Source: Betaproteobacteria bacterium (GTDB lineage: Bacteria; Pseudomonadota; Gammaproteobacteria; Burkholderiales; Casimicrobiaceae). Taken from it: DNA of 64,000 nucleotides. Positions 1,247-57,535 of this stretch are shown here, piece after piece. Position numbers and translations under genes: made by a program. The stretch spans positions 372,001 through 436,000 of the forward strand of contig JAAFIS010000001.1 of NCBI GenBank assembly GCA_013298695.1, given 5' to 3'. The notes under the pieces were generated by a model. The model was given only the letters and a program-made list of their open reading frames with translations. It was not told the origin of the DNA and made no database searches. How positions within the stretch are numbered: position 1 is the stretch's first letter; every line of letters begins with the position of its first letter.

Positions 1247-1329
1247 CCCCAGTTATATCGGGCGATAAGGCAAATCAACGACATTATCAAGTAGATAGAA
1301 AAATTGTTTGACACCCAATTTTATAGGGC
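1247..1329. repeat. Twin-core palindromic intergenic element, copy 1
   Basis: Two 17-nt core sequences, CCCCAGTTATATCGGGC (1247-1263) and ACCCAATTTTATAGGGC (1313-1329), start exactly 66 bp apart. Between them is AT-rich DNA with ATTATCAA starting 20 nt after the first core. The flanks inside the cores are weakly inverted repeats. It sits between the rplQ terminator and the convergent YeaQ-type gene. It belongs to the dispersed family described in the findings; its function is unknown. Confidence 0.7.
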
Positions 1330-1362
1330 GACGCCGAGTTTTTGTTGTTTACTCGCGGCTCG

Positions 1363-1617
1363 TTAACTAGTCGATTTTTTCGTGAGCAAGCTATAGATAA
1401 ACACGACAACCACTGCGCCGACGATAGAGGCGATCCAGTGCGTCCCTGCTTTCGCCGACACGATACCGAGCTGCTGCCCGCCGTAAGTGCCCACCAACGA
1501 ACCGATGCAGCCTAAGATGGCGGTGATGATGATGCCGCCTCCTTGCTTACCGGGCACCAAAAACTTAGCGACGGCACCCACCACTAGTCCGACCAACGCG
1601 AAAATGATGTATTCCAT
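1363..1617 (-). CDS. GlsB/YeaQ/YmgE-family stress-associated membrane protein
   Basis: The 84-residue product begins MEYIIFALVGLVVGAVAKFL and continues through PGKQGGGIIITAILGCIGSLVG to a third hydrophobic segment. This gives the three-helix, glycine-rich layout of the YeaQ/YmgE transglycosylase-associated family. The start at 1617 is chosen because a strong GGAGG-type ribosome-binding site lies just upstream on this strand (complement of 1621-1634). A longer frame reaches further upstream but lacks such a site. The family is often stress-induced; its biochemical role is not established. Confidence 0.9.
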   Translation of the reverse strand: MEYIIFALVGLVVGAVAKFLVPGKQGGGIIITAILGCIGSLVGTYGGQQLGIVSAKAGTHWIASIVGAVVVVFIYSLLTKKSTS

Positions 1618-1790
1618 AATTTTCCTCCTCCTTAGTGAAAACACGGATACTGTACACCAATGCGGGTTAGCCCGCGTTTCTTGCACGCTGACACCGACGC
1701 TGTTGCTGGTTGACGCGCAATGGCGTGAGTGAATCCCGGTAGCAATCGGCAGCGATCAGCACGCATTGGCTTGTGTGAAAGGTTCTAGAG

Positions 1791-1886
1791 ATGGAATGGA
1801 TACAAAACCACCTAGCGGAATTGGCGATGTCGGCGGCGATGGCCTGGCAAGGAGCGAGCGGGCGCTTCGCGACAGCGAAGCGATGA
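1791..1886 (+). pseudogene. Truncated duplicate of the DUF4126 gene start
   Basis: Bases 1787-1847 are identical over 61 bp to 2060-2120, the start of the intact gene downstream. After codon 19 the copy diverges and reaches a TGA at 1884-1886, giving a 31-codon remnant. The true gene keeps its own AGGAG site, so this copy is probably a dead by-product of an insertion or duplication. It could still act as a short upstream reading frame. Confidence 0.75.
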
Positions 1887-2059
1887 GGCCGAAGGCGCGC
1901 CCCGCGACCTCAGAACGTTTTTTTGAATCAAGTCGCGGAGGTTCGGACGCGGCTTCGTCGTCTCACGCGGCGGGTCTTCGACCTTGTCGGCTACCCTAGC
2001 GGGTAGCCGCGCCTTCGCTCCTCGCAGACGACGCAGCAGCCCCAGGCAATCAGGAGAAC
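1848..2059. mobile_element. 212-bp insert between the duplicated 61-bp segments; possible small non-autonomous element
   Basis: The insert is flanked by perfect 61-bp direct repeats. Near its ends are imperfect inverted arms: AAGGAGCGAGCGGGCGC near 1849 on the left and the complement of GCGCCTTCGCTCCTCGC at 2009-2025 on the right. Inside is a strong hairpin, GGCTACCC-TAGC-GGGTAGCC (1989-2008). No protein is encoded. A MITE-like element and a duplication by replication slippage are both possible, and a 61-bp target duplication would be unusually long. Confidence 0.35.
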
Positions 2060-2063
2060 AGAG

Positions 2064-2684
2064 ATGGAATGGATACAAAACCACCTAGCGGAATTGGCGA
2101 TGTCGGCGGCGATGGCCTGGGGCGCAGGGATTCGCCTCTACCTCGTCGTTTTTGTTGTTGGCCTACTTGGCAAATTTGGCTACGTGCCGCTGCCTGAGGC
2201 TATGAAAATTATTGCAAATCCGATTGTGCTGGGCGCCGCGGGTTTCATGACGTTCATTGAGTTTTTCGCCGACAAGATCCCGTGGCTGGATAGCGCGTGG
2301 GATGCAGTGCATACGTTCCTGCGTATTCCTGCGGGCGCAGCGATGGCGGCTGGCATGCTGGGTGATAGCGGCGACGGCGTGGCGATGGCCGCCGCACTGA
2401 TCGGCGGCACGCTTGCAGCAGGCACTCACTTCGGGAAGGCCGGCACCCGCGCTGCGGTGAACACATCCCCCGAGCCGTTTAGCAATATCGCCGTGTCACT
2501 CGCGGAAGACGTCACGGTGGCGGGCGGACTTGCGCTAGCCGTTGCAAACCCTTGGGTGTTCTTGGGATTGCTGCTAGTTTTTGTGGTCGCGCTGATTATT
2601 TTGCTGCGCTACCTCGTCAAGGGGCTACGCGCGGTGTTGCGGAAGGTGTCAAACTGGTTGCTGCCAGCGCCAAACTCCGCGTGA
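2064..2684 (+). CDS. DUF4126 family membrane protein
   Basis: The 206-residue product has an amphipathic N-terminus followed by several hydrophobic segments. It shows the family pattern around GIRLYLVVFVVGLLGK, ADKIPWLDSAWDAVH and the FLRIPAGAAMAAG segment. These proteins are predicted inner-membrane proteins of unknown function. The ATG at 2064 follows CAGGAG by 8 nt. It converges on dnaE with only 18 bp between the stops. Its first 57 bp of coding sequence are repeated 273 bp upstream. Confidence 0.88.
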   Translation: MEWIQNHLAELAMSAAMAWGAGIRLYLVVFVVGLLGKFGYVPLPEAMKIIANPIVLGAAGFMTFIEFFADKIPWLDSAWDAVHTFLRIPAGAAMAAGMLGDSGDGVAMAAALIGGTLAAGTHFGKAGTRAAVNTSPEPFSNIAVSLAEDVTVAGGLALAVANPWVFLGLLLVFVVALIILLRYLVKGLRAVLRKVSNWLLPAPNSA

Positions 2685-2702
2685 TGCGTCAGCCGGGCCG
2701 AA

Positions 2703-5700
2703 TCAAAACTCCAGCTCTGCCGAGAGTTTCGAAAGCAACTCGGTTTTCGGCGTGATTCGCCATTGCTCGCCAAGATCGACGCGACCGCCGTAGCCGTCTT
2801 TACGCAAGTCAATGGTTACCGCGACGGAGCCGCCGACGTAGGGTTTAAGCAAACTCAGCAACTCGTTGGCTTCTTTCGCCGCGCTTTTCCCGTTGAGTTT
2901 CACGATCAAGCGACGCGCGTATTGCGCGCGAGCTTGGTCGATTGTGTAGAGCTGATCCGCGACGACTCGTGTGCCCATGCCTTCGCGCCCTGCTGAAATT
3001 TTCGCTTCGATCACAATCGGAATATCTTCTTTGAGCCAACTTCGATGCGCTTCAAACTGCGTTGCCGGAATCATCACTTCAAAGATGCTCGTACGATCAT
3101 CGAGCGTCAAAAAACACATGCGACCGTTGCGCGAATTGATCGTGCGCACTGCGTTAACGATCCCCGCGAGTCGCTGCTTGGTATCACTGGGCTCAATGCG
3201 CGCCAACGGCATCGTTGTCACGGCTGAGAGATCTTTGCGATACGCCTCGTAGGGGTGACCACTCAAATACAAACCCAGCGCCGATTTTTCGTTCGCGAGC
3301 GTCTCAAGCAAATCCCACGGGCGCGCGTCGACTAATGCGACGGCGTTCACGCTCGGGTCGTCGCCGAATAAATTGTTCTGAGCGATGTTGGCCTGCGCGC
3401 GCTCGGCCTCGCCCAGCGCCGCACCCACGCTCGCGAACGCGCTCGCACGATTGCTATGAAGTTGATCGAACGCGCCGCTCTTCACAAGTGCCTCAACGGT
3501 TCTTCGATTCACGGTTTGCGTGTTCACGCGCTTGCAAAAATCAAACAGATCGGTGAACGCTCCGCCTTCGTCTCTGGCGCGAAGAATTTCGATGACCGCA
3601 CCTTCTCCGGTGCCCTTCACGCCACCTAAACCGTAGCGAATCGTGCCTCGATCCACGGGCACGAACCGGTACTCACCAAGATTCACATCGGGCGGCTCGA
3701 AGCGTAGCCCGATATCGCGCGCGTCGTCGAGCAAGATACGAACCTTGTCGGTGTCGTTCATCACGGCGCTCATGTTGGCTGCCATGAAAGCGGCCGTGTG
3801 ATAGCGCTTAAAGTAAGCCGTTTGATAGGCGAGCAATGCGTAGGCCGCGGAGTGCGACTTGTTAAAGCCGTAGCCCGCAAACTTTTCCATGTCGTCAAAG
3901 AGCCGCTTTGCGAGTTCTTCAGCAACGCCGTTTTTGAGCGCGCCTTGGACAAAGATCAAGCGATGTTTCGCCATTTCTTCGGGCTTCTTTTTGCCCATCG
4001 CGCGTCGCAACAAATCGGCGCCACCGAGCGAATAGCCGCCGATAATTTGCGCGGCCTGCATCACCTGCTCTTGATAGACCATGATGCCCAGAGTCTCTTC
4101 GAGCATCGGCTTCAACCGATCGTCGTAGTACTCAACCGCTTGCTTACGATCTTTGCGCGCGATGTAGTCTGGAATCAGCTCCATCGGGCCCGGGCGATAG
4201 AGCGCATTGAGCGCTGTGAGATCTTCTAGCCGAGTTGGACGCGTCTTCAAGATCAGATCTTGCATGCCCGCCGATTCAAACTGGAAAATTGCGATAGGTT
4301 TGCGTTCGCGAATCAGCTGATAAACCGAAGCGTCATCTAGCGGCAGCGTCTGCAAGTCAACCTCGAAGGTCGGATCCAGTCGTCTACAAAAGCGGATCGT
4401 CCAATCAAGAATGGTGAGCGTTGTTAACCCGAGAAAATCGAACTTGACCAGCCCAACGGCTTCAACGTCGTCTTTGTCGAACTGGCTCACCATTGGCGAG
4501 CCCTCATCCTGCGAGTACAGTGGGCAGAAATCGGTAAGCTTGCCCGGTGCGATTAGCACGCCGCCTGCGTGCATGCCAACGTTTCGCGGCAGGCCTTCAA
4601 GTTGCTCAGCCAGCGCCAGTAACGCCGACACGTCTTCTTCATTTTTCTCGCGATCAGCAAGAAGCGGTTCGGCCTCTTTCGCATAAATCGTATTGGCCGC
4701 ACGATCCTTCGGATCGGCGGGCATGCGCGTGAGTGTTGTCCATTTGCCCGGTTGAAACGGAATCAGTTTCGCCACGCCATCAACGAAGGTGTACGGCATA
4801 TCGAGCACGCGTCCGCAATCGCGGACTGCCGCTTTTGCGGCCATCGTGCCAAAGGTTGCGATTTGCCCGACACTTTGCGCGCCGTATTTATTACGAACGT
4901 AGTCGATCACCCGATCACGCCCATCCTGGCAGAAATCGATGTCGAAGTCGGGCATCGATACGCGTTCAGGATTCAAGAAGCGCTCGAAAAGCAAGTTGTA
5001 TCGGAGCGGATCAAGATCGGTAATTCCCAGAGAGTATGCGACCAGCGAGCCTGCACCCGAGCCGCGTCCGGGGCCAACCGGAACTCCGTTGTTTTTCGCC
5101 CAACCAATGAAGTCGGCAACGATCAAAAAGTAACCCGGAAAACCCATCTTCACGATGGTTGCAATTTCGAATTCGCAACGCTCGATATAGCGCGGACGTT
5201 CGCGGTCGCGCTCGGCCGCTTCAGGAAAAAGAACCGATAATCGTTGCTCAAGCCCGGTGAGCACTTCGTTGCGCAAATGTGCTTCGATCGTGACGCCCGC
5301 CGGCAGCGGAAAGTCGGGCAGGTAATTGGTGCCGAGCTTCAAATTCAGCGTGCAACGCGTCGCAATGGCTACCGTATTCGCGATTGCTTGCGGGTAGTCG
5401 CTAAATTTTTCGCACATCTCTTGTTGCGTAAGAAAGTGCTGCTTCTCGGTGAAGTTATGAGGTCGCCGCGGGTCGCCCAGTGCGTAGCCTTCAGCAATAC
5501 AAACGCGCGCATCGTGCGCGTAAAAATCGTTGGACGTCGCAAACTGAATCGGGTGCGTTGCAACGACTGGAATCTGTAACTCGTTCGCCAGTGCGACGCT
5601 CGCCGCCACGAAATGATGCTCGTCTTTGAATCCAGCGCGGTGAATTTCCATCGCATAGCGATTCGGGAAACGCGATTGCCATGCCTGCGCCGCTCGTTCA

Positions 5701-6374: not shown

Positions 6375-7580
6375 ATGACAACCAACAATACGCTTGTGAG
6401 CCCAGTTTATATGGGCGCTCGCGCTGCAATAGCTCAACTACGACAATCAAAGATTCGAGACGTCGCAAACGCGGGAATAGGGCGAAGCGATGTGCTGCCG
6501 TTTTGGTTTGGCGAACCTGACGAAACCACGCCCGCGTTCATTCGCGATGCCGCTGCGGCAAGTCTCACCCGAGGCGAAACGTTTTACTCGCACAACCTCG
6601 GATTGATCGAATTGCGCGAAACGCTTGCGAGTTACGTCTCCGCGCTGCACCCGAATCCGCGATTGCCGATCACAGCAAACAACATCGCGGTCACGAGCTC
6701 GGGGGTCAACGCTTTGTCGCTGGCGGCACAGGCGCTGGTCGATCCCGGAGACGATGTGGTGTGCGTGACGCCACTCTGGCCCAATTTGGTGGAGATACCG
6801 AAAATCCTCTCGGCCAACGTGCGCTGCGTACCGCTAGAGTTTGACGCGACACGAGGGTGGACGCTCAACATCGAGCGGCTCCTGAGCGCGCTCACGTCCA
6901 CAACCAAACTTCTCATGGTGAACTCGCCGAACAACCCGACCGGTTGGACGCTGAATCGCGACGAGCAACGCGCGATTCTGGAACACTGCCGTGAACGCGG
7001 CATCTGGATTGTGGCCGACGACGCGTATGAACGACTGGTCTACGATGAGACGAGCTGCGCGCCGTCATTTCTGGATATCACAGACGAAAGTGATCGCGTC
7101 ATTAGCGCCAACACATTCTCCAAGTCTTGGTTGATGACAGGCTGGCGCTTGGGCTGGCTCGTCGCGCCCGCGGCGCTCATTGAACATTTGGGAAAAGTCA
7201 TCGAGTACAACACCTCGTGTTCACCGGTCTTTGTCCAGCGCGCGGGCATCGTTGCCGTGCGCGACGGTGAGTCGGTGATTGCCCGCACACAGAAACGTTT
7301 CAGAGCCGCGCGCGACCATCTTTGCGCTGCGCTAAACGCGATAGACGGCGTGAGTGCGCCAGCGCCGCCCGGGGCAATGTATGCGTTTTTCAAGGTGGAT
7401 GGCTTAACCGACTCGCTCGCATTTTGTAAGCAGCTGGTTGCCGATCAAGCGCTCGGACTTGCGCCCGGTGCAGCGTTTGGCGATGAGGGCGAAGGCTTTG
7501 TGCGTTGGTGTTTCGCAAGCGAACTCAAGCGGCTGGATGACGGATTGCAGCGATTTCGCGAAGGCGCAAAACCTGCTTAG
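6375..7580 (+). CDS. Class I/II pyridoxal-phosphate aminotransferase
   Basis: The 401-residue product is a fold-type I aminotransferase. Visible landmarks are the glycine-loop region VTSSGVNALSLAAQAL, NSPNNPTGW (about 183-191), the cofactor aspartate region VADDAYERLVYDE, and the Schiff-base lysine K250 in FSKSWLMTGWRLGW. The substrate cannot be fixed from motifs; aspartate, valine-pyruvate or aromatic specificities all occur in this group. No convincing ribosome-binding site precedes the ATG. The next gene is a transporter on the same strand 80 bp away. Confidence 0.93.
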   Translation: MTTNNTLVSPVYMGARAAIAQLRQSKIRDVANAGIGRSDVLPFWFGEPDETTPAFIRDAAAASLTRGETFYSHNLGLIELRETLASYVSALHPNPRLPITANNIAVTSSGVNALSLAAQALVDPGDDVVCVTPLWPNLVEIPKILSANVRCVPLEFDATRGWTLNIERLLSALTSTTKLLMVNSPNNPTGWTLNRDEQRAILEHCRERGIWIVADDAYERLVYDETSCAPSFLDITDESDRVISANTFSKSWLMTGWRLGWLVAPAALIEHLGKVIEYNTSCSPVFVQRAGIVAVRDGESVIARTQKRFRAARDHLCAALNAIDGVSAPAPPGAMYAFFKVDGLTDSLAFCKQLVADQALGLAPGAAFGDEGEGFVRWCFASELKRLDDGLQRFREGAKPA

Positions 7581-7660
7581 CCGATAGCCAGTCTCTGCGC
7601 CCCGTACGCCGACCTTTGCAAAGCTCCTCGCCAACACCGCTGAAAATTTTCTAGCTACCT

Positions 7661-10999: not shown

Positions 11000-11128
11000 T
11001 CGGTTATTTTGCAGGTTCCGAAAGCGCTGCGCAGCAGCGATGCTTACGCGTTAGCGGACGGAGATTCAGAGCGTGCTACGAACGAGCCCGAACAGAGTGG
11101 AAGTCGGAATTCAGCTATTAGTTGTAAA

Positions 11129-11212
11129 CGTCAAATTAATTGGGCGATGACGTAATTTATTGGAATTATCAAAAATACCAATAAATTGCATTATCACCCA
11201 AATAAATATGCG
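11129..11212. repeat. Twin-core palindromic intergenic element, copy 2 (best hairpin)
   Basis: The cores are CGTCAAATTAATTGGGC (11129-11145) and ACCCAAATAAATATGCG (11196-11212), 67 bp apart, with ATTATCAA at the same register as in copy 1. Here the interior arms are nearly complementary. Bases 11139-11163 pair with 11178-11203 at about 21 of 25 positions around a 14-nt loop. The copy could form a long stem in RNA or a cruciform in DNA. It lies between divergent genes. Confidence 0.75.
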
Positions 11213-11438
11213 TGTCGCTGGGGAATCTGCATTTAGTTTAAAGTCGTTTCTAGTGTCGTTCTGAGGCGACGCACTGCCTGAGAAACTTCGGTCGCGAAGC
11301 AACTATCGAAAAATGCCGGTGTCATACTCGTGGTTGCATGATAGGTGCCGAATTTGCGGGACAGCGCAGCGGATCGGAAACGATCAGTTGCTATCGGGCG
11401 ATGCGGTGGTGTCATGCGGCTACGGGGGAGTGTTTATC

Positions 11439-12423: not shown

Positions 12424-13971
12424 TTACTCGCGTGCAAACAGCGAGTGATGTGTATCGCGCAGCAGGTTCTTTTGAACTTTGCCCATCGCGTTGCGCGGAA
12501 GTTCGGCGGCGACAAACACGCGCTTGGGAACCTTAAAGTTTGCGATGCCTTTTTTAAGCGTCGCGATCATCGCGTCTGCGTCGAGTGTGGCCCCCGTTTT
12601 CGCCACAGCGATCGCAACGACGGCCTCACCAAAATCCGGGTGCGGCACGCCGATCACGGCTGACTCAGCAACGCCCGGCATGTCATTAATGTAGCTCTCA
12701 ATTTCAGCCGGATACACGTTGTAGCCACCGCTAATGATGAGGTCTTTGCTGCGGCCCACGATCGTGAAATAGCCGCGTTCGTCGCGCTTGCCGACGTCGC
12801 CGGTTTTAAACCACCCGTCGCTCGTAAATTCTTCTTTTGTCTTTTCAGGCATGCGCCAGTAACCCGAAAAAACGTTAGGGCCGCGAACTTCGATGCCGCC
12901 GATTTCATCAACGTCGCAACGTTCAGCACGATCGTTGCTGAGGCGCACGTCGACACCGGGTAGAGGAAATCCCACAGTGCCGCCGCGTCGCTCACCTTGC
13001 GATGCTAGATAGGGGTTTGAACACAGCATGTTGGTCTCGCTCATGCCGTAGCGCTCGAGAATCGTATGCCCGGTGCGCTCGCGAAATTCGTTGAACGTCT
13101 CGATCAACAACGGTGCAGAACCCGCAATAAAAAGCCGCATGCGGCTGCAAACTTCCCGCGTTAGGCGCGAATCCGCGAGCAAACGCACGTACAGCGTAGG
13201 CACTCCCATAAACACCGAAGCCCGTTTCAATTGGGCGATAACGCCTCTTTGATCGAATTTCGAGAACCAAATTAATTTTGCTCCTGTCAGCAAAAAACAG
13301 TGGCTCGCAACGAATAGACCGTGTACGTGGAAGATCGGCAATGCATGGATTAGTACATCGCGCTCTGACCAGTCCCAGTAGTCCACTAACGTTTTCGCGT
13401 TCGAGAGCAAATTCCCGTGCGAGAGCATCGCGCCCTTGCTGCGGCCCGTTGTGCCGCTGGTATACAAAATAGCGGCGAGATCGTTGGCTGATTTGTGTGC
13501 GATCGAATGGGTCTTGGGCTGATCGGTAGCGGCATCGAGCACAGTGCCGATGCCGTCTTCATCGAGCGTGAACAAATGCGCCACGCCAGCTGCGTCGGTA
13601 ATGGGCTTTGTCCACGCATAGTTGCGGGTGCTACAAACAAACATCGCCGGTTCCGCGTTGCCCACAAAGTATTCAATCTCACTTGCTTGATACGCGGTGT
13701 TTAATGGCAAATACACATAGCCCGCCCGCAGCACTGCGAGATACAGCATCAACGCTTCAACGCTCTTCTCGGTTTGCACTGCGACCCGCGCGCCTGGCGC
13801 GAGCTTGAGCGATTGCAACATATTGGCAAGGCGCGCGGTTTGTGCCTCAATATCGGCCCAGGTAACCTCTCGATAGATCGTCCCGGTTGAGGGTTCCGCA
13901 ATCTCAATGGCAGTGCGATTGCGATCCGCAGGAAACGCCGACGCGATTGCCGCAAACAAGTTTTCGTTCAT
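12424..13971 (-). CDS. matB: Malonyl-CoA synthetase (AMP-binding family)
   Basis: The 515-residue acyl-CoA ligase carries the AMP-binding P-loop YTSGTTGRSKGA and the adenylate motif ERYGMSETNML. The substrate-linked region has GERRGGTVGFPLPGVDV, and the C-terminal hinge is GRSKDLIISGGYNVYPAEIE. The GMSETNM segment and GTVGFPLPGV match malonyl-CoA synthetases rather than acetyl- or long-chain ligases. It makes malonyl-CoA from malonate, CoA and ATP. It is the last gene of the operon starting with the GntR regulator and including malonyl-CoA decarboxylase, which supports the assignment. Confidence 0.92.
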   Translation of the reverse strand: MNENLFAAIASAFPADRNRTAIEIAEPSTGTIYREVTWADIEAQTARLANMLQSLKLAPGARVAVQTEKSVEALMLYLAVLRAGYVYLPLNTAYQASEIEYFVGNAEPAMFVCSTRNYAWTKPITDAAGVAHLFTLDEDGIGTVLDAATDQPKTHSIAHKSANDLAAILYTSGTTGRSKGAMLSHGNLLSNAKTLVDYWDWSERDVLIHALPIFHVHGLFVASHCFLLTGAKLIWFSKFDQRGVIAQLKRASVFMGVPTLYVRLLADSRLTREVCSRMRLFIAGSAPLLIETFNEFRERTGHTILERYGMSETNMLCSNPYLASQGERRGGTVGFPLPGVDVRLSNDRAERCDVDEIGGIEVRGPNVFSGYWRMPEKTKEEFTSDGWFKTGDVGKRDERGYFTIVGRSKDLIISGGYNVYPAEIESYINDMPGVAESAVIGVPHPDFGEAVVAIAVAKTGATLDADAMIATLKKGIANFKVPKRVFVAAELPRNAMGKVQKNLLRDTHHSLFARE

Positions 13972-17322: not shown

Positions 17323-17353
17323 ATGAAAATGTACATCAATAAAATCGATATAA

Positions 17354-17436
17354 GTCCCTTTATAGTGGACCATTCGAGGACTTAACTGAATTAGCGAAAA
17401 TTGAGGAAATACCTTATAAGCCAAATAAATTAGTGG
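17354..17436. repeat. Twin-core palindromic intergenic element, copy 3 (divergent sequence)
   Basis: Cores GTCCCTTTATAGTGGAC (17354-17370) and GCCAAATAAATTAGTGG (17420-17436) are 66 bp apart. The interior has ATTAGCGA at the register of the family box. The core bases differ from the consensus, but the first core keeps its end-pairing, as expected if structure is conserved. A TAAGTCC/GGACTTA pair (17351-17357, 17378-17384) adds a second possible stem. Confidence 0.55.
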
Positions 17437-17607
17437 ATACATGCAATTTTCTAGTCATCAGCTTGCCATCGTTTTGTACGCACTTATCCCTGTACACGCA
17501 GCGTGATCAGACGTAAACTCTAAGAAGTATCTGTGTGGCGCGCGTATTACAAGTTTTATAAACCGCCCTACATCGCTGATTGACGTAACGTAGGGGGGCG
17601 TTGCTTA

Positions 17608-27058: not shown

Positions 27059-27100
27059 GCGCCAATGGTATCCGACACTCGATGATCTATCTAAGTATTC

Positions 27101-27191
27101 GCCCTATTTTATCAGGCGATAGAATAATTTTCGTTACGTATCGATTGTGATCGCAATAACGAACAACGCCCGAATAAATAGGGCGTTGTTC
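27101..27191. repeat. Twin-core palindromic intergenic element, copy 4, with strong hairpin
   Basis: Cores GCCCTATTTTATCAGGC (27101-27117) and GCCCGAATAAATAGGGC (27168-27184) are 67 bp apart, with a GTATCGA box at the family register. The second core is extended into a perfect 11-bp stem, GAACAACGCCC/GGGCGTTGTTC (27161-27171, 27181-27191), with a 9-nt loop. It has no T run, so it is not a standard terminator. It lies between two genes on the minus strand. Confidence 0.72.
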
Positions 27192-27238
27192 GAAGGTGCT
27201 GGAAGCCGAAACTGCATCGATTCCCGTCTATAAACCGC

Positions 27239-35697: not shown

Positions 35698-36046
35698 CTG
35701 CGACCCCGGATAATGGCGCTCCAATGTTTTCGTTATCGGGAGCGATGCTTATTTTTAGAGCGCAGATAGCCGGGCGTCAAGCAATTCAAGCTCAGAAAAG
35801 CGACAGCAAGGCTCCAAGTGTCTTCAAGTCGGCCAGCGCACCCTTAGGCCGTACCAATAACTTGCGCTCGGATCGGGTGCGTCCAAGCCTGAGCACAGTA
35901 GGCTTGCAAAACTCCCTCATGCAACGTACTAGCCTCAAGGCTATAAAGCCTATTTGTATGGGCGATAAGTCAAATTAGTCTACGTGTCAGAAAAATAGTT
36001 TTATTCGCCTTAAGCATTACATAAATGGAGTTTAATACTAATGCTG
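35698..36046. other. 349-bp intergenic region within the delta-60 cluster
   Basis: It contains the promoter region of the serine hydrolase and, at its right end, a twin-core element (35947-36029). The rest (35698-35946) shows no gene, and only a minor AGCCT-CA-AGGCT hairpin near 35930. Confidence 0.55.
35947..36029. repeat. Twin-core palindromic intergenic element, copy 5
   Basis: The first core is AGCCTATTTGTATGGGC (35947-35963), where T-G and A-T changes keep the pairing. The second, much weaker core (near 36013-36029) is at the expected distance. A GTGTCAG box lies at the family register. GGCGATAA near the left and TTATTCGCC near 36001 are additional complementary arms. It ends 17 bp before the stop of the next gene. 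Confidence 0.58.
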
Positions 36047-37753
36047 TTAGGGTAGCGAGTATCCGCAGCGATTGATGAAGTGCGCGCGCAGTTTTGTCCA
36101 AGTTGTCCGCGCAGCTTGCGGCGCGAAGCTGAGCCCTGTCGTGACCGAAGTTCCGGTGAAGCCGAACGCGATGCGCGCATGAATCACGGAATCGGTCGCG
36201 GTTTCGGTGCCATCGCCATCGTAGTCAATCGAGGTGCGCAACAATTTTTTGTAGATCGGCGTCCACGCATCCACGAAAAACGGCACGCCGAGTCCGCTCA
36301 CCATGATGAATCCCGCGAATGGATTTTTGTAGAGACCACTTACCGTCCGAGCGTGAAGTAGCGAATCGCTGACTGCGAGCACGATACCGCTGCTATCGAG
36401 ATCAACATTGCACGCGAGCCCACCTGTCGGCGAACCGTAGTAGCGCGCGACGCAAAAATCGTATTGACTGCTACCGCTGGCATAGCGGCAGCGCCCGGCA
36501 GCGTAGAGTTTTCCGTCGCGCCCGATGGCGGCAGCAAAGCTCTCATCAACTGCAAAACTGCTTTGTGGCCCAAGAATAAGTTTGCTGAAACCTGTGCCAT
36601 TGAAACTGGTGTCGAGTGAGCCGTTGGCGTTGTAGGCGACAAGGCAAAAGCGGCGACCAGCGGGCGAAAAGTCATAACAGTGACCGGCAACGACGATCTT
36701 CCCATCTGCCTGTTCAACGATGGAGCGCGCCTCCGAATATGAATCTGCGATGCGCGTGACCACGTAACCGTTGGTGCCAAATCCGGTATCGAGCGTGCCG
36801 TCTGCGTTGTAGCGTACCGTAGCGAAATCGAACGCCGTACTGCTGTTTACTGTGTTGAAGGCTTGACCTGTAAGCAGTATCTTCCCGTCGCTTTGAACGG
36901 TCATGGCATACGCGTAGTCTTGACTTCCGGGAAGTGCGGCCACGACGCCATTGGTAAACGAGGCATCTGCTTGTCCGCTGCTGGTGAATCGCGAAACACA
37001 AAACACCGGCTGCGAGCTGATAAAGCAGCTTCCGCCAAGTAACACCCGATCATTTGGGTCAATCGCCATCGCGTAGGTTTCGCGATTGAACGTTCCTGTA
37101 AATCCATTGAGCAGCAAACCGTTATTCGCAAACGCGGTGTCGATTGCGCTGCCGTCCTGCAAATAGGCGATTGCGCAAATTTGATTTCCGCAAATGCCAC
37201 CGATCAGCAATCGACCATCGGATTGATAGCCAATGGATGAGGGGTAATTGTTAGAGGTTGCGAGCGATGTCGTCACGACCCCGTTGTTCCCGAATCCGGT
37301 ATCGACTGCGCCCCTGGCATCGAACCGCGCAACGCAAAATTGACGAACGCTTGACGCATTAGCGCACCCGGTTGCGATCAGCGCGCCGCCCGTAGGCGTG
37401 AGCGCAATCGCGGTCGCGGGGTAGACGCCGTTGTTCCCTGCGATCGAAAGCGTAGTCTTGCCCGACGTGCCGTAGCTCGAATCCAGCGAGCCATTTGCGT
37501 TGTAGCGCACGACGCACAAGCTATACGCACTGCCGTTGTAGCAAACACCCGCGACCACAATTTTTCCGTCGAGCTGCACAGCGATCGCGCGTCCGATGTC
37601 TTGCGAACTGGTGTTTGTAGGCGAAAGGATCGACGTTTTCACATAGCCCGTATTCGCGCCGCCCCAGGATAGATCCAACGTGCCGTAAGTCTGTGCAAAC
37701 GCGCCCGCGAGCGCAACGCTTGCGAATAGCGCACTCGCGATCTTTGCGAACAT
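36047..37753 (-). CDS. Secreted delta-60 repeat protein with dockerin-like C-terminal domain (1)
   Basis: The protein of about 568 residues has a signal peptide (MFAKIASALFASVALAGAFAQ). At least seven delta-60 repeats follow, with the pattern LDTSFGxxG and DGKIVVAGxC (for example VQLDGKIVVAGVC, VQSDGKILLTGQ). Such repeats probably fold as a beta-propeller. The C-terminus has two EF-like loops (DLDSSG, DYDGDGTETATD), each followed by a helix with an arginine, and a final RCGYSLP. ATG 37753 is preferred because the signal peptide starts there; an in-frame extension to 37876 is possible. Function is unknown. Confidence 0.83.
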   Translation of the reverse strand: MFAKIASALFASVALAGAFAQTYGTLDLSWGGANTGYVKTSILSPTNTSSQDIGRAIAVQLDGKIVVAGVCYNGSAYSLCVVRYNANGSLDSSYGTSGKTTLSIAGNNGVYPATAIALTPTGGALIATGCANASSVRQFCVARFDARGAVDTGFGNNGVVTTSLATSNNYPSSIGYQSDGRLLIGGICGNQICAIAYLQDGSAIDTAFANNGLLLNGFTGTFNRETYAMAIDPNDRVLLGGSCFISSQPVFCVSRFTSSGQADASFTNGVVAALPGSQDYAYAMTVQSDGKILLTGQAFNTVNSSTAFDFATVRYNADGTLDTGFGTNGYVVTRIADSYSEARSIVEQADGKIVVAGHCYDFSPAGRRFCLVAYNANGSLDTSFNGTGFSKLILGPQSSFAVDESFAAAIGRDGKLYAAGRCRYASGSSQYDFCVARYYGSPTGGLACNVDLDSSGIVLAVSDSLLHARTVSGLYKNPFAGFIMVSGLGVPFFVDAWTPIYKKLLRTSIDYDGDGTETATDSVIHARIAFGFTGTSVTTGLSFAPQAARTTWTKLRAHFINRCGYSLP

Positions 37754-39490: not shown

Positions 39491-41119
39491 TTACTCAACA
39501 ATTTTCATGTCACATTGGGTGCGCAGATATGTACGCAATTCGCCCCATGTTTTCCTCGTTGCGTGCGCGGCAAACACAATACTGTTTATCGCATCGCGCA
39601 GGCGCATACCTCGTGAAACCCGGTTCAGGATCAGCAGATCCGTGGTGCCTAGTACCACGCCGTCGCCGTCAATATCAAGGCTGCATTGTCGGGCGCCGAG
39701 CGGGCCGCCCTGATAGCGTGCAATGCACATCGCGCCGTCGATCGGCGCAGAAGATTCGGTGCAAAGCCCAGCAACGACGATCGCTCCGTCGGGTTGAACG
39801 TGCACCGCGTAAGCAACATCTTGTCCGTCGACGACGTTGGTTTTCACCACGCCATTGGTGCCGAAGCTCGTGTCGACGCTGCCGCCGTCGTTGAGTCGAA
39901 TAGTGCAGAAGTTGGTTCGCCCACTGACCGAACATTCACCCGTCGCAATTATTCTGCCGTCGGGCTGCACTGCGAGCGCGTTAGCCGACGCGAACGCGCT
40001 ACTGAGCGTGGTTTTCACGACGCCGCCACTGCCGAATGTGCTGTCGAGCGCACCTGCAAAATCCAATCGCGCGAAGCAGAATCCATTTGTTAAATTGCCG
40101 ACCACGGGACCGTCGACAACGCAGTAACCCGCAATGACTGATTTTCCGTCGGCTTGTAGCGCGATCGACGTTGCGGCGGCAGACACGGCAAGCGAATTGG
40201 GCACGCACGCGATGCCCGAAATGCCGTAGCCGCTGTCTACAGCGCCGTTTGCAGTGAAACGGTATGCGCACATTACATTGCCAGCCGATGATGAGCCGGC
40301 AACGATGATCGCCCCGTCGCTTTGCAGCGCTAGACCGTAGCCTGCGAGATTCACCGTTGTTGAAAGAAATCGCCGACCTTGATTGCCAAAGCTCGGATCA
40401 AATGCCCCAGAGCTTAAAAAACGTGCAGCACACACGGTGTAATACGTTCCGTCGAAGCAGGTGCCCCCCATCACGATTTTTCCGTCGGGCTGAATCACCA
40501 TTCCGCGCGGATCCGCGTTGCCCGCGCCAACGACTTGATTGACGACGCCGCCGCTGCCAAAGCTTGTGTCGAACACGCCGCTGGCCAGCAACCGCACCAT
40601 GCAAAACGAGCGAATGTTGAAGGCCACGCACGATCCGGCAACAACGATCTTTCCATCGGTCTGAACTGCCGCTGCCGTGGCGTAATCCGCAGCGAGCGAC
40701 AGCGTGATTCGCGAGATTCCGGAGGCATAACCAAACGCCGTGTCCGCCGAACCATCGGCGTTGCGGCGCAGAATGCAGAAGTCGGCAGAGTTGCCGGTGC
40801 CGCAGGTGCCGCCAATAATGAGCTTGCCATCCGGCTGCCGCGCAATCGCGCCCGCTGAATCGAGTTGATCGGCGTTTAGGTTGAGGAAATAGCGACCAAA
40901 CGGGCCACCAAATGTGGGATCAAGATCGCCCGGAAATGCCCAATTTAATTGGGCAAATGACGAAAAAAAATAAATTATCGAGAAGCAGATAAAGTTCCTG
41001 TATGACCAATTTAAATAAGGCAAAAATGGCTGGTGTTGCTTAGTTGATTCGCCGCTTGAACGTCTCCCTAAACTCAACGATATACGCTGCACTTTTTGCC
41101 CCCGATATTCGAAATACAC
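39491..41119 (-). CDS. Secreted delta-60 repeat protein with dockerin-like C-terminal domain (3)
   Basis: The mature part begins FPGDLDPTFGG and holds delta-60 repeats (DGKLIIGGTC, DGKIVVAGSC, DGRIIATGEC). The end is the shared domain QCSLDIDGDG, TTDLLILNRVSRG, and TWGELRTYLRTQCD. The N-terminus is uncertain. The longest frame uses GTG at 41119, giving 542 residues with an unusual polar extension. A TTG at 41023 would give a direct signal peptide (NFICFSIIYFFSSFAQ). Neither has a good ribosome-binding site. The signal-peptide codons coincide with a twin-core repeat element, so the original start may have been replaced. Confidence 0.78.
   Translation of the reverse strand: MYFEYRGQKVQRISLSLGRRSSGESTKQHQPFLPYLNWSYRNFICFSIIYFFSSFAQLNWAFPGDLDPTFGGPFGRYFLNLNADQLDSAGAIARQPDGKLIIGGTCGTGNSADFCILRRNADGSADTAFGYASGISRITLSLAADYATAAAVQTDGKIVVAGSCVAFNIRSFCMVRLLASGVFDTSFGSGGVVNQVVGAGNADPRGMVIQPDGKIVMGGTCFDGTYYTVCAARFLSSGAFDPSFGNQGRRFLSTTVNLAGYGLALQSDGAIIVAGSSSAGNVMCAYRFTANGAVDSGYGISGIACVPNSLAVSAAATSIALQADGKSVIAGYCVVDGPVVGNLTNGFCFARLDFAGALDSTFGSGGVVKTTLSSAFASANALAVQPDGRIIATGECSVSGRTNFCTIRLNDGGSVDTSFGTNGVVKTNVVDGQDVAYAVHVQPDGAIVVAGLCTESSAPIDGAMCIARYQGGPLGARQCSLDIDGDGVVLGTTDLLILNRVSRGMRLRDAINSIVFAAHATRKTWGELRTYLRTQCDMKIVE
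40938..41021. repeat. Twin-core palindromic element, copy 6, inside a signal-peptide coding region
   Basis: The first core is the perfect palindrome GCCCAATTTAATTGGGC (40938-40954). The second is ACCAATTTAAATAAGGC (41005-41021), 67 bp away. The interior has ATTATCGA at the family register. On the minus strand this element encodes the hydrophobic segment and the AQLNWA cleavage region of the third delta-60 protein. It is the only copy found inside a likely reading frame. Confidence 0.75.
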
Positions 41120-44616: not shown

Positions 44617-44759
44617 AGAAATAGCGAATGCAGTTCATTGCGGGTTGGACGAATTCAATAGACTCATCGTGCCACATTGCGCTGAGTTTGCAGCGATTGA
44701 AAACCCGCGCGTGCTCCAAAATGCGGTACGTTTCATTCTTACGGCAGTTTCAGTAAAAC

Positions 44760-44838
44760 GCCAATATTAATTGAGCAAGACGAAATCTACGATAAATATT
44801 GACCTATTAGATAAAACGAGTGTTTGCCCAGGCAAAAA
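44760..44838. repeat. Twin-core palindromic intergenic element, copy 7 (second core shortened)
   Basis: The first core is GCCAATATTAATTGAGC (44760-44776). At +66 lies GCCCA followed directly by GGC, as if the second core had lost its centre; TTTGCC-CA-GGCAAA there is itself a palindrome. AATATTGAC stands near the family box. It lies between the sigma factor and the inositol oxygenase genes. Confidence 0.55.
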
Positions 44839-44880
44839 GTCTTTTTAATTAAATTGTCAAATGAAACTCGCACGCGTCGA

Positions 44881-47622: not shown

Positions 47623-47650
47623 GTTTTAGAGTTCATCTTCTGTAGTCATC

Positions 47651-47734
47651 GCCCAATCTAGTTGGGCGATACCATCGTTTTTATAGATTATCAATATGTA
47701 GTCAAATAGCAGTCATCGCCAAAACAATTTGTGT
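47651..47734. repeat. Twin-core palindromic intergenic element, copy 8, inside the liv-type operon
   Basis: Cores GCCCAATCTAGTTGGGC (47651-47667, arms of seven bases) and GCCAAAACAATTTGTGT (47718-47734) are 67 bp apart. ATTATCAA is at the family register. It separates the binding-protein gene from the permease gene, so it could uncouple their expression, for example by RNA processing or attenuation. Confidence 0.72.
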
Positions 47735-47799
47735 TATCACTGATGTAGTTGGAATGCGGCAAGACGTATGTCTACTTGCATTCGATATGCTCGCAACGC

Positions 47800-52738: not shown

Positions 52739-52838
52739 GTGTTGCAGGCGATGGCGAGCTGTCGGCTCGCAATCGTCGCTTAACTCAACCCGAGGAGGCA
52801 GCGCGCGCGTTGTCTCCTTTTTTGATGCAGGTGAAAAC

Positions 52839-53396
52839 ATGACTTCGACCATTCAAGGATTTGTAGCCTCCGCGCCAAGCGGAGTTAGAGCGCCTGCCGT
52901 GCCAGTGTCGCTTGCGACCAGCGGCGCAGTGAATCCAATTTCAATTACAACGGATCGCGAAGGCTGGTTTGCGTTCACGCAACTGCCCGCGGGGCGCTAT
53001 CGAGTATCAACCCCGGGTGCGCGCAGCGAGGAAATCGCACTCGATCGATACAGCACCATCACGCTTGAACTGGCGATTCCCGAATACAACACGCGCGAGC
53101 ACGGTTCGATCGCCGGTAAAGTGGTTGCAGTAACAACGGGATATCCGATAGAAAACGCGAGCGTAATGGTGCTTCACGGCGCCGGTTCTGCGCCCGACAT
53201 TGCTCCGCTCACCAACGCGCAGGGGCGGTTTTCTCTGGAGGGCCTAGCGGCGGGAGAATGGCGTCTTCGCGTATTCGCACCGTCAGGGCAGACTGCGACG
53301 CCGCGCATTGAAGTTCGAGCGAATGAAACCGCAATGGTGACGGTGGTCATTGGTGGCGACAGTGACAATTGCGGGTGTACTTACAACATGGAATGA
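52839..53396 (+). CDS. Two-domain CarboxypepD-regulatory-like beta protein
   Basis: The 185-residue product has two Ig-like regulatory repeats of about 85 residues each. Both show the pattern TDREGWFAFTQLPAGRYRV / TNAQGRFSLEGLAAGEWRL. The tail is DNCGCTYNME with two cysteines. It has no signal peptide. ATG 52839 follows CAGGTG; a frame extending to 52641 lies inside the protease gene. Such domains often mediate binding in or near peptidases. Its place after the trypsin-like gene suggests it is a partner or target. Confidence 0.78.
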   Translation: MTSTIQGFVASAPSGVRAPAVPVSLATSGAVNPISITTDREGWFAFTQLPAGRYRVSTPGARSEEIALDRYSTITLELAIPEYNTREHGSIAGKVVAVTTGYPIENASVMVLHGAGSAPDIAPLTNAQGRFSLEGLAAGEWRLRVFAPSGQTATPRIEVRANETAMVTVVIGGDSDNCGCTYNME

Positions 53397-53420
53397 CCCG
53401 CGCTGTGAAGCAAATAGATA

Positions 53421-53452
53421 GCGACCACCGGGTGTAATCCCGGTGTGCTCGC
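53421..53452. terminator. Hairpin between convergent genes, possible terminator
   Basis: CACCGGG and CCCGGTG (53426-53432, 53439-53445) form a perfect stem, extended by GCGA/TCGC outside it. A T-rich stretch (53455-53463) follows about 10 nt later on the plus strand but overlaps the end of the convergent gene. It would end the trypsin-like transcription unit. Confidence 0.5.
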
Positions 53453-53454
53453 AG

Positions 53455-54939: not shown

Positions 54940-55162
54940 GGTCTGGCTCCTTATTTCGTTGAGGCGGGTCATTCGCCAAGGCAAGTTTGCTTTCACCAGG
55001 CTCGCAAGTCATCTCCACTTTTTGTCGCGCTTGGCTGATAAGTGCGACGATTTGTGGACGATTTCAACGCACCGCTCGACGCTGTCACGTTTCGCAGTTT
55101 GTTTGCGTCCTTAACATTAGAAAGCGAGCGTTTGACTCGTAGAGACCGCCCGGGAGTTTTTG

Positions 55163-57346
55163 ATGAACTTAGAAACACGTTGCCTCGAGCTCGCGCTCGC
55201 GGCACATCGAAATGGCGATCTCGCGGCCCTCTGTCAGCAGCGCCCGCGCATTGTCAGGTGGCTACTGCGTAAGTATGCGCAGCCGCTTTTGTGGCACGTC
55301 CACGCCACCGAGGGTGCAGCGCTCAACGACGTTGTGGCGCTGTGGCTTCGTTGGGCACTCCGCGAAAGTGCGCCGGACTTGCGATCGACCGAGGCGTTGC
55401 ATCGCAGTGCGTGGCTGGGTGCCCCGATCTGGCGGCCGTATGTTGCCCTTGCTTCGCACTACGGTTTTTTTGCGGTGCCCGATTTTCGCGAGCGCTACTG
55501 CGCTCGGCGCGACGAGCCTCCGTTTGAGCGCATCTGCGGGCTATGGGGTATCGCGCCCAGCAGCTTTTATCGCTATCTGGATCGTGGCAAGCGAAAACTC
55601 GCGGCGCAATTGTTTGTGCCGCTAAATCGCGAGCGATTTAGCTCATTGTGCGATTTCATTCGAATCACCTCGGTGGCCGCACCCGGTGTCGAAGGCTTAC
55701 CTGCAACACATTTTGATGGGCACGAGCTACATCGAACGCAGCAACGTGATCACCTTTCCACGTTTTGGCGGCTCTTGCGTAGCGAGCAAACGCGCGGCGC
55801 TATCGAGTATGCGGGCGAGCATTTCACGAGCTTCTGCGAATATGAGTTGATTGATCCACTGCTAGATCAGGTTGCAAACGGTGCACAGGAAGTGCACGAA
55901 CGAATAGGTTTGAGCCTGCTGCGAGCCCGGATCGCGCAATCGCAAAACCGCCCGGAAGCACAGGCGCAGGAGCTGCGTCGCGCGCTCGAACTCGCCTCAT
56001 CCGTCAACGATTTGCTAGCGCTTGCGCGCGTCTATGCGGCGACTGCGCGCTCGGCCGAACTGCGCGACGTTGATCGAGCAATGGCCGACTATCGCGCGAG
56101 CATTGACCACTACGACCGTATTTTGTTGAGCGCTCCCGACGATGCAGAGCGCCTCGATTCCGAACGCGTCGCAGCGTCAATTCGGCTCGCCTGGCTCTAC
56201 ATTCAACGCAACGATCCGACAGCGACTCACTTAGTTGCGCATTGCGAAGCCCGCGCCAATGACGCGAACACTGATATCGAAACGCTTGCAAGCCTCGCGC
56301 AAGCGCGCGCGGAACTCTCGCGTCGAGTCGGAGATCGGCAAACGGCGATCAGTGCGAACCTTCGAGCACTGCAGTTTTACGAGCGAACTGCGAACACCTC
56401 GCAAGCCCTGCGCGTTTGTGGGACGCTTGTGCTGCTCTACGGTGAGCTGAAAGAGTTGCCGCTGGCGCGCGAGTACGCCGACCGCGTTTTTCGCAACGAA
56501 CGTTTAGGCGTTGAGGCGCACACGGTGGCTGCGACGTACTTGAACTTGGGCGTTGCGTATTTCTGGAGTGACGAGTTTGATGCGGCCATCGACGCCTATC
56601 AATGCGCGCTTGATATTGCCAGCAAGAACCGCTTGCACCCACTTACTGGGCGTGCTCACTACAACATGGCGGAGACTTTTTATCGCAGGCTTCGCATTAC
56701 CAACGACGCTGTTGACGAGCGCTTTGGCGACACCCATGTCGAATTTGCAGTTTCTATCTGGGAGCGCTCTGGCGACAAAGCGGCCTGTGAAGCGACCCGC
56801 AACTTGAAGAGCACCGTGCTCGGTTTGCGTGAACATTTGGTGTACGACCGTTTGCTGCCCGCAGAGCTAGCGGCTCATTTCGATGAGCTCACGCGCATCC
56901 AAGCGCAACGACTCGCGATGCAGCGCGCGAATTGCGACGAGGCACGAGCGCTCGCACTGTTGTCAGTTGCAAAAGAGTATCTCGACATTGCAGTGAAAGA
57001 GCGCGAACGCGCACTCGCGCTGTTGCGGGATCGCTCCATCAGCGCTGCGGTTGATGAGCGGTTGCGCGCTTTGTCGGAAGCGTTTCATCGATCACTGTCG
57101 CTAGAAGAATCGCTCATTGAGCGCTGGCGCAATGAGTCGAAAGGCGTTGTACCAGAGGACAAGCTGGATCGACTCGCCAAGCACTTGGCGCGCTCCGACA
57201 CCATCAAGAAAAGCACTTACGCAACGCTTTGCGCGGTGAGCCCCGCAACCGCGTCAAAACATCTTGCATTGCTCGCGCAATCGGGGCTGCTGGTGAAAGC
57301 CAATCGCGGAAGGGCAACGCTATTCCGACGGGTCGATCCCCACTAA
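55163..57346 (+). CDS. TPR-rich protein with C-terminal winged-helix-like domain
   Basis: The protein of about 727 residues has an N-terminal helical region and an array of TPR-like helical pairs (about 250-560; for example TYLNLGVAYFWSDEFDAAIDAYQCAL in part). The C-terminal segment (about 685-727) includes YATLCAVSPATASKHLALLAQSG and reads like a winged-helix DNA-binding unit. It is probably a cytoplasmic regulator or scaffold for the adjacent protease genes, which is inference. ATG 55163 follows GGGAG. A short region near 180-190 (GIAPSSFYRYLDRGKRKLA) also resembles a helix-turn-helix. Confidence 0.7.
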   Translation: MNLETRCLELALAAHRNGDLAALCQQRPRIVRWLLRKYAQPLLWHVHATEGAALNDVVALWLRWALRESAPDLRSTEALHRSAWLGAPIWRPYVALASHYGFFAVPDFRERYCARRDEPPFERICGLWGIAPSSFYRYLDRGKRKLAAQLFVPLNRERFSSLCDFIRITSVAAPGVEGLPATHFDGHELHRTQQRDHLSTFWRLLRSEQTRGAIEYAGEHFTSFCEYELIDPLLDQVANGAQEVHERIGLSLLRARIAQSQNRPEAQAQELRRALELASSVNDLLALARVYAATARSAELRDVDRAMADYRASIDHYDRILLSAPDDAERLDSERVAASIRLAWLYIQRNDPTATHLVAHCEARANDANTDIETLASLAQARAELSRRVGDRQTAISANLRALQFYERTANTSQALRVCGTLVLLYGELKELPLAREYADRVFRNERLGVEAHTVAATYLNLGVAYFWSDEFDAAIDAYQCALDIASKNRLHPLTGRAHYNMAETFYRRLRITNDAVDERFGDTHVEFAVSIWERSGDKAACEATRNLKSTVLGLREHLVYDRLLPAELAAHFDELTRIQAQRLAMQRANCDEARALALLSVAKEYLDIAVKERERALALLRDRSISAAVDERLRALSEAFHRSLSLEESLIERWRNESKGVVPEDKLDRLAKHLARSDTIKKSTYATLCAVSPATASKHLALLAQSGLLVKANRGRATLFRRVDPH

Positions 57347-57451
57347 GCGCAGCGCGTGTTGAAGCGCGGTCGAGAGGTCAAGCGCTGTGGTGGTGTTGCG
57401 AAGTTGGGTGACTTGGACTTCACCCTTCGCGCCGACACCTAAATCGTGAAA

Positions 57452-57535
57452 ATCCTATTCGATTGGGCGAAACGCTATATAAATGTATATAGCGAGGAAC
57501 AGAAAATATGACGCTACGGCTCAATTAAAATGGGG
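57452..57535. repeat. Twin-core palindromic intergenic element, copy 9
   Basis: Cores ATCCTATTCGATTGGGC (57452-57468) and GCTCAATTAAAATGGGG (57519-57535) are 67 bp apart, with TATAGCGA at the family register. The left interior also forms its own perfect stem, CGCTATATA/TATATAGCG (57473-57481, 57486-57494), with an AATG loop. It lies between the TPR gene and the LOG family gene. Confidence 0.68.

What the first reader, a model, noticed from the sequence alone, without database searches (positions are those of the whole stretch)
1247..57535. A dispersed 84-bp intergenic element with two palindromic cores at fixed spacing
Seen directly: nine intergenic or start-proximal places (1247, 11129, 17354, 27101, 35947, 40938, 44760, 47651, 57452) carry a 17-nt quasi-palindromic core, best form GCCCAATTTAATTGGGC. 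Each is followed 66-67 bp later by a second core of the same type. Between them an ATTATCRA-like box (R = A or G) starts about 20 nt after the first core. Some base changes in the cores keep pairing (for example CCTAT...ATGGG at 35949). Single cores occur at 58878 and 63675. I recognise no known repeat, riboswitch or attachment site with this layout. It may be a palindromic MITE/REP-like family, an RNA processing or attenuation element, or a protein-binding array.
Basis: partly seen in the sequence, partly recalled or inferred. Interest (0 to 1): 0.85.

Follow-up and report, generated by a model that had tools for sequence, protein, structure and literature searches.

The report
Symmetric intergenic DNA site with dialects
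Many copies of a two-fold symmetric, roughly 120-base DNA site sit mostly between genes in one group of uncultured betaproteobacteria, where an unidentified protein probably grips or wraps the DNA, and related species spell the inner part of the site in different ways.

Summary
All nine reported places are real: a matrix counted only from copies outside the window scores them 29.5-89.7 against a maximum of 1.2 in 30 simulated windows. The unit is a two-fold symmetric DNA frame of about 118 bp, not 84: outer boxes CAGCT...AGCTG, two 17-bp dyad cores 67 bp apart, TCGA at the exact centre. An 856-kb stretch holds about 110 clear copies, mostly intergenic, favouring gene 3' ends and convergent pairs, without recent duplicates or target-site duplications. 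Positions are partly shared between species. Several relatives keep the rigid frame; three use another core, AACGACC-N7-GGTCGTT (102-218 sites against 0-7 in 14 other genus members), and gyrA rejects those three as one clade. RNA hairpin, REPIN/RAYT, MITE and terminator readings were tested and fail or gain no support. Gyrase wrapping fits size and symmetry, but not the phasing or the near-constant GyrA. Best reading: a double-stranded protein-binding, probably wrapped, site with an unidentified reader of changeable specificity, acting as a bidirectional boundary at transcription-unit ends (reader, wrapping and function inferred).

The parts
1230..1347 (.). dyad element 1 (cores at 1247 and 1313; centre 1288.5), in a convergent gap
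   Evidence: leave-window-out score 63.8, control max 1.2; context
11112..11229 (.). dyad element 2 (core at 11129; centre 11170.5), in a divergent gap
   Evidence: score 89.7; context
17337..17454 (.). dyad element 3, weakest of the nine (core at 17354; centre 17395.5), in a divergent gap
   Evidence: score 29.5; context
27084..27201 (.). dyad element 4 (cores at 27101 and 27168; centre 27142.5)
   Evidence: score 58.9
35930..36047 (.). dyad element 5 (core at 35947, second core degenerate; centre 35988.5)
   Evidence: score 47.3
40921..41038 (.). dyad element 6 (perfect core at 40938; centre 40979.5), overlapping the called start of a minus-strand gene
   Evidence: score 74.2; context
44742..44859 (.). 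dyad element 7 (core at 44759/44760, second core degenerate; centre 44800.5)
   Evidence: score 52.9
47634..47751 (.). dyad element 8 (core at 47651; centre 47692.5), just 3' of a Peripla_BP_6 gene
   Evidence: score 69.8; gene
57435..57552 (.). dyad element 9 (core at 57452; centre 57493.5)
   Evidence: score 66.2
6383..6500 (.). weak candidate copy at the start of an aminotransferase ORF
   Evidence: score 23.1; may be chance or a half element
13203..13320 (.). weak candidate copy inside ORF 12424..13971
   Evidence: score 24.1
   Evidence: score 17.7; tRNA 58990-59062

Best explanation
The element is a composite double-stranded DNA binding site with two-fold symmetry. SHOWN: a rigid frame of about 118 bp (outer AGCTG boxes at about +/-56 bp, dyad cores at +/-33.5, AT tracts at about +/-13, TCGA in the centre), repeated many times, mostly between genes and biased to gene 3' ends and convergent pairs, partly kept at orthologous places between species, with the core word differing between species. 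INFERRED: two dimers of one protein sit on the two cores and, with contacts at the centre and outer boxes, bend or wrap the DNA (AT blocks recur about every 9.8 bp). The particle acts as a bidirectional boundary at the ends of transcription units, limiting read-through or the spread of supercoiling. The protein that reads the core changed its specificity, or was exchanged, between lineages, and the sites followed in place.
For: Symmetric logo with spacers at background information; about 46 bits per site here; little or no pairing covariation. Rigid frame pattern with N48 gaps, up to 3 mismatches: 205, 172, 165, 136, 132 and 95 matches in six relatives, reversed control 0 in all 17 genus genomes, and 0 of 294 order genomes outside the genus. 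Position: 98 of 110 copies not inside a called gene, 83% with under a quarter of their length coding; convergent gaps 24 against 12.4 expected; centre within 80 bp of a stop codon 43% against 25%. Orthology: G002 orthologs have the element in 7 of 13 when the G000 gene does, 3 of 67 when not (p 5e-5); G005 3 of 6 against 3 of 62 (p 0.007); past gyrA in 10 of 15 genomes. Dialects: type II core 102-218 in three genomes, 0-7 in 14. G012 has a type II element 107.5 bp past the gyrA stop where G005 and G011 have type I at 105.5 and 102.5. A gyrA tree splits the type II species; holding them as one clade is rejected (AU p 1.6e-42).
Against: No reader protein found; the only regulator family compared (Lrp/AsnC) shows no clear dialect-linked change. 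A cosine near 9.8 bp explains at most 30% of the AT profile, so wrapping is a guess. The GTCGAC-centred frame pattern matches this genome once and G002 never: their centre and outer boxes are looser variants. The positional test is not significant for G012 (1 of 7 against 1 of 28) or G010 (1 of 4 against 0 of 10), and genes flanking one element are not independent. Divergent gaps hold 13 of 88; that is low by length (24.2 expected) but not per gap (17.3 expected, p 0.15), so a 3'-end role cannot be the whole story. Within-core pairing has a small excess in G000 (z 4.0). 3' ends with and without the element carry intrinsic terminators equally often (17 of 92 against 49 of 310). The tree is one gene, and G012, G005, G011 and G008 have odd base composition. 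No expression, footprint or topology data; gene calls are my own simple caller.
Confidence: 0.5

Rival explanations
1. Strong DNA gyrase sites: gyrase straddles the centre and wraps both arms, and the sites lie where transcription piles up positive supercoils.
For: The E. coli gyrase motif is 130 bp and symmetric about a 4-bp stagger, with AT/GC-phased arms, and gyrase is enriched downstream of transcribed operons (PMC6379681, passages). The element has the same length and symmetry, a 4-bp palindromic centre, and 3'-end/convergent bias. In phage Mu, the AT profile of the G000 element has its best offset within +/-15 bp exactly at the annotated gyrase cut (centre 17881.5; within +/-12 bp), rank 300-384 of 36,578 positions in three scoring variants.
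Against: Best period is 9.4-10.2 bp, not 10.75. Mu's site is not among the top hits; with 3-bp smoothing it falls to rank 1501, the central 18 bp carry no signal, and relatives fit worse (rank 2305 for G005, 5013 for G012). Gyrase prefers -2A/+6T (PMC12324340, passages), but this genome has T at 38 and A at 45; G005 and G012 have A/T there. The GyrA C-terminal part differs at only 10 of 326 residues between G005 and G012 although their cores differ, and base-specific positions reach 1.7 bits.
Confidence: 0.16
2. A species watermark kept by biased DNA uptake or a similar molecular drive, like the uptake-sequence dialects of Neisseriaceae.
For: Species dialects, many independent copies, gene-end bias, no shared spacers; uptake-sequence dialects are published (PMC3630211, seen only as title and start of abstract).
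Against: Uptake sequences are 10-12 bp (recalled), this is about 118 bp with a dyad centre; 98 of 110 copies are not inside called genes; competence was not tested.
Confidence: 0.1
3. A REP/REPIN or MITE family spread by a tyrosine or other transposase.
For: Two inverted palindromes 67 bp apart resemble REPIN doublets at 71 bp (PMC3116915, passages); Y1_Tnp occurs in 15 of 17 genus genomes and is not found in G016 and G008, where no clear copy was seen in the DNA fetched.
Against: REPINs form hairpins with compensatory changes; none clear here. The one Y1_Tnp gene found in G000 lies beside a different GTAG-type repeat. Highest pairwise identity among the top 110 copies is 0.57; no target-duplication offset stands out; positions are partly orthologous.
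Confidence: 0.08
4. A pair of back-to-back RNA hairpins acting as a bidirectional terminator or RNA-processing signal.
For: 3'-end and convergent bias; some cores are stem-loops followed by T, such as the one 3' of gyrA.
Against: Pairing no better than shuffled in G002, G005 and G012 and only slightly so in G000; single-strand folds of the nine are mixed; 7 of 92 element-bearing ends have a terminator inside the element and terminator frequency is unchanged.
Confidence: 0.06

Closest known systems
E. coli gyrase motif / strong gyrase sites (Mu SGS, pSC101 par)
   Same: about 130 bp, symmetric about a 4-bp centre, AT/GC phasing, transcription-unit ends
   Different: period near 9.8 rather than 10.75, high base specificity, core dialects despite near-constant GyrA
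REP/BIME/REPIN elements with RAYT transposases
   Same: many extragenic palindromic doublets at fixed spacing, species-specific words
   Different: no clear hairpin covariation, no GTAG or CGTC tag noticed, the local Y1_Tnp gene has another REP beside it, positions partly kept between species, a central and two outer modules
DNA uptake sequences (Neisseriaceae dialects)
   Same: species dialects of a dispersed word, often near gene ends (recalled)
   Different: length, rigid 118-bp dyad, mostly extragenic; uptake untested
Dispersed nucleoid-protein sites such as parS, matS (recalled)
   Same: palindromic chromosomal protein sites
   Different: far more copies and far longer composite site; no reader known

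Membership tests
Gyrase strong site | two-fold symmetric region of about 130 bp around a 4-bp centre | tested here: met
   symmetry about +41.5, conservation from about -27 to about +103, weak beyond
Gyrase strong site | arms phased at about 10.75 bp | tested here: not met
   best period 9.4-10.2 in four species; in the outer arms of three of them 10.75 fits nearly as well (R2 0.14-0.21 against 0.16-0.22)
Gyrase strong site | cleavage-centre preference -2A/+6T | tested here: inconclusive
   not met in G000, met in the G005 and G012 consensus
Gyrase strong site | binding and cleavage by gyrase | not testable with these tools
   needs Topo-Seq or footprinting
REP/REPIN | palindromes pair as a hairpin with compensatory changes | tested here: not met
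   no excess in G002, G005, G012; small excess in G000
REP/REPIN | RAYT gene flanked by the same repeat | tested here: not met
   the Y1_Tnp gene of G000 lies beside another REP; nearest element about 1.7 kb away; not checked in relatives
REP/REPIN | inverted doublets at fixed spacing in extragenic space | tested here: met
   cores 67 bp apart, 98 of 110 not inside called genes
MITE | near-identical copies and target-site duplications | tested here: not met
   maximum identity 0.57 in the top 110 of G000, 0.59-0.61 in G012 and G005; no duplication offset stands out in four species
Structured RNA / riboswitch | match to a curated family | tested here: not met
   only a tRNA in the window at gathering thresholds
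Intrinsic terminator | hairpin plus T-tract, taking the place of other terminators | tested here: not met
   17 of 92 against 49 of 310, p 0.53
DNA uptake sequence | short word preferentially taken up | not tested
   no uptake data; length argues against
Lrp/AsnC operator array | regulator whose recognition helix changes with the dialect | tested here: inconclusive
   30 loci of 33 matches in seven genomes; of three orthologs shared by G005 and G012, two keep the recognition helix and one differs by a residue there, judged by eye

The most novel reading that the evidence does not exclude
Probability: 0.3. Interest if true: 0.92.

Novelty: new variant of a known kind. Interest (0 to 1): 0.8.

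Why it matters
A long dispersed site whose core word differs across the chromosome between close relatives, while its frame and some of its positions stay, is hard to explain by transposition or by ordinary regulon drift. Identifying its reader would show how a genome-wide protein-DNA code is rewritten in place, and could reveal a sequence-positioned DNA-wrapping particle or boundary system in bacteria. Six relatives with clear counts, one of them a single-contig genome, make it testable.

Tried and rejected
RNA structure: per-copy folding gave mixed z-scores; pair tests show no clear covariation. RAYT/REPIN: Y1_Tnp distribution looked suggestive, but the G000 gene lies beside another REP. MITE: no duplications. 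Intrinsic terminators: no difference. Lrp/AsnC reader: no clear dialect-linked change. Gyrase: kept as a rival. pSC101: the AT profile puts 4727.5 at rank 4-5 of 9324, but I had no source for its cut position, so it is not counted as evidence; the recalled pBR322 site near 990 in the shared tet region did not score well (best within 15 bp rank 249). G016, G008 and G017: with four dialect matrices the best scores in the 160, 67 and 120 kb fetched were 0.4 or lower, some slightly above the control maximum; this does not exclude another dialect. R1 found 6 matches in G008 (best 9.5e-8) and 0 in G016. The site counts of 153 (G000) and 84 (G002) above control include 4 and 7 shifted alignments of the same element; above score 38 there are 107 and 42, in G005 30 of 33, in G012 23 of 25, in G010 7 of 25. 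One search missed the G000 copy because it scanned from the stop codon onward; its centre is 66.5 bp after the match end. Literature: eight searches listed nothing that by title or abstract describes this element; they cover only the open-licence library. Casimicrobium was searched as a guess at the genus and not confirmed.
Full report
OBSERVATION. The nine places are real. A position matrix counted from 99 copies outside the window gives them 29.5-89.7, while 30 simulated 64-kb windows reach at most 1.2; the 99 copies were themselves found by an iterative search seeded with window and other copies. The core pattern (up to 1 mismatch) occurs 159/155 times (two strands) in the 4.08-Mb genome; the same pattern reversed occurs 0 times. 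A scan of an 855,900-bp stretch finds 149-153 alignments above a simulated control, some of them shifted alignments of one element; 107-110 score above 38 with none closer than 75 bp to another. By extrapolation (not counted) that is about 500 clear copies per genome.

ANATOMY. In the 110 strong copies (score above 38; the weaker 39 of 149 left out) the information profile is symmetric about position +41.5 from the first core. Reading outward from the centre: TCGA; AT tracts at about 13; the 17-bp dyad GCCCAATTtAATTGGGC centred at 33.5; an AT step near 44; and AGCTG at about 56. Several spacer blocks have information near zero, and flanks average 0.005-0.008 bits. The total is about 46 bits here and 35, 65 and 75 in G002, G005 and G012, the last two inflated by few sequences. 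Pairwise identity of the top 110 copies averages 0.41 with a maximum of 0.57, so they are not recent duplicates of each other. Of 32 near-perfect cores in the stretch, 27 lie in two-core elements and 5 are solo.

NOT RNA, NOT A TRANSPOSING REPEAT. Letters at facing positions do not covary in G002, G005 or G012; in G000 within-core pairing is 0.499 against 0.470 (z 4.0) and whole-dyad pairing 0.406 against 0.392 (z 2.9) (an earlier test on 110 copies gave z 0.9-3.0). Rfam finds only a tRNA in the window at gathering thresholds. No target-site duplication offset stands out in four species. The single Y1_Tnp gene found in G000 (C1:100153-100674) lies beside a GTAG-type REP, of which forms have 3-6 copies in the stretch and which is unlike the element. 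Its nearest element is about 1.7 kb away.

WHERE THEY SIT. By a simple gene caller, 12 of 110 copies are inside a gene and 98 are not; 83% have less than a quarter of their length coding. Of 88 lying wholly in gaps of at least 124 bp, 24 are in convergent gaps (12.4 expected by available length, p 0.0005; 12.9 per gap, p 0.002) and 13 in divergent gaps (24.2 expected by length, p 0.0035; but 17.3 per gap, p 0.15). The centre is within 80 bp of a stop codon in 43% (25% expected) and of a start in 5.7% (10.8% expected). Intrinsic terminators are equally common at 3' ends with and without an element (17 of 92 against 49 of 310).

RELATIVES AND DIALECTS. The type I core pattern is absent in 20 and at 1-2 per strand in 3 of the 23 family and order relatives tried. 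Species-wise training gives the same architecture in G005, G002 and G012; G012 has the core AACGACC-N7-GGTCGTT (type II). The rigid frame CAGCTTTT-N48-GTCGAC-N48-AAAAGCTG with up to 3 mismatches occurs 205 times in G007, 172 in G012, 165 in G003, 136 in G011, 132 in G006, 95 in G005, 36 in G013, 19 in G001 and 0-8 in the other nine, among them G000 with 1 and G002 with 0, whose centre (TTATCGATAA-like) and outer boxes are looser; its reversed control is 0 in all 17. In an order-wide sample of 300 genomes, six of them from the genus, only G005 and G000 match; the reversed control matches once each in four others. The type II core (up to 1 mismatch) occurs 218, 123 and 102 times in G007, G003 and G012 and 0-7 times in the other 14; its control is 0-6. 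So frame and core vary independently: G005 has the frame with type I-like cores, as do the gyrA-side copies of G011 and G006; G007 and G012 have the same frame with type II, and G003 has the frame and type II cores by count.

SAME PLACES, CHANGED WORD. If a G000 gene has an element within 260 bp of its 3' end, its G002 ortholog has one in 7 of 13 cases against 3 of 67 otherwise (p 5e-5); at 5' ends 4 of 8 against 2 of 72 (p 6e-4). G005: 3 of 6 against 3 of 62 (p 0.007), 5' ends 0 of 2 against 2 of 66. G012 1 of 7 against 1 of 28 and G010 1 of 4 against 0 of 10 are not significant. Past gyrA an element lies with its centre within about 170 bp of the stop in 10 of 15 genomes with that region in hand: G000 and G010 (the weakest), G004, G015, G001, G002, G012, G011, G005 and G006; not in G009, G007, G008, G003 and G014. 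There G005 and G011 have type I elements centred 105.5 and 102.5 bp past the stop, and G012 a type II element at 107.5, in the same slot. A gyrA tree groups G012 with G011 and G005 (84/90), and G007 with G003 (100/100) inside another clade (100/100); holding the three type II species together costs 236 log units (AU p 1.6e-42; the group was named after the tree was seen). Caveat: one gene, and four rows of odd base composition, G012, G005 and G011 among them. The simplest reading is a separable trans-acting reader that was changed or exchanged, with sites following in place (inference).

MECHANISM. AT-rich blocks recur with a best period of 9.4-10.2 bp in four species, suggesting that one face of the DNA is bent against a protein; the fit is loose (R2 0.16-0.30). 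Gyrase was the first candidate: its E. coli motif has this length and symmetry (PMC6379681, passages and one section), its DNA wrap prefers inward AT (PMC11626157, passages), and the element's AT profile has its local maximum exactly on the annotated Mu gyrase cut. But the period differs from 10.75, the Mu site ranks only 300-384 of 36,578 (1501 when smoothed), relatives fit it worse, the cleavage-centre preference (PMC12324340, passages) is not met in this genome, and the GyrA C-terminal part differs at 10 of 326 residues between G005 and G012, whose cores differ. I therefore prefer an unidentified dimeric reader on the two cores, forming a bidirectional boundary at transcription-unit ends.

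COMPARISON. REP/REPIN: similar doublet spacing (71 bp in PMC3116915, passages; tag families in PMC3733652, passages), but hairpin, transposase and mobility features are not met. Uptake sequences: similar dialect behaviour (PMC3630211, listing only), but different size; untested. No listing in eight literature searches describes this element by title or abstract.

Noticed in passing
G000 C1:100153-100674 (locus L022:153-674, minus): A RAYT-like Y1_Tnp gene beside GTAG-type palindromes (GGTGGGCACGGGGTGCCCACC and relatives), a low-copy REP family separate from the element.
   Followed up: partly
genus genomes: Y1_Tnp is present in 15 of 17 genus genomes and not found in G016 and G008, two small genomes where no clear copy of the element was seen in the fetched DNA.
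   Followed up: partly
L136 (G003), 3' of gyrA: A CGTC-type palindrome (CGTCATTCCCGCGAAGGCGGGAAT), resembling the CGTC repeats of PMC3733652.
   Followed up: no
window 27160-27190: The second core of element 4 extends into a long inverted repeat that folds as a 12-bp stem, unlike most of the nine.
   Followed up: no
L124 and L137 (G010, G014), 3' of gyrA: These sister species share a terminator-like hairpin after gyrA; a degenerate element matches in G010 (score 43) but not in G014.
   Followed up: no
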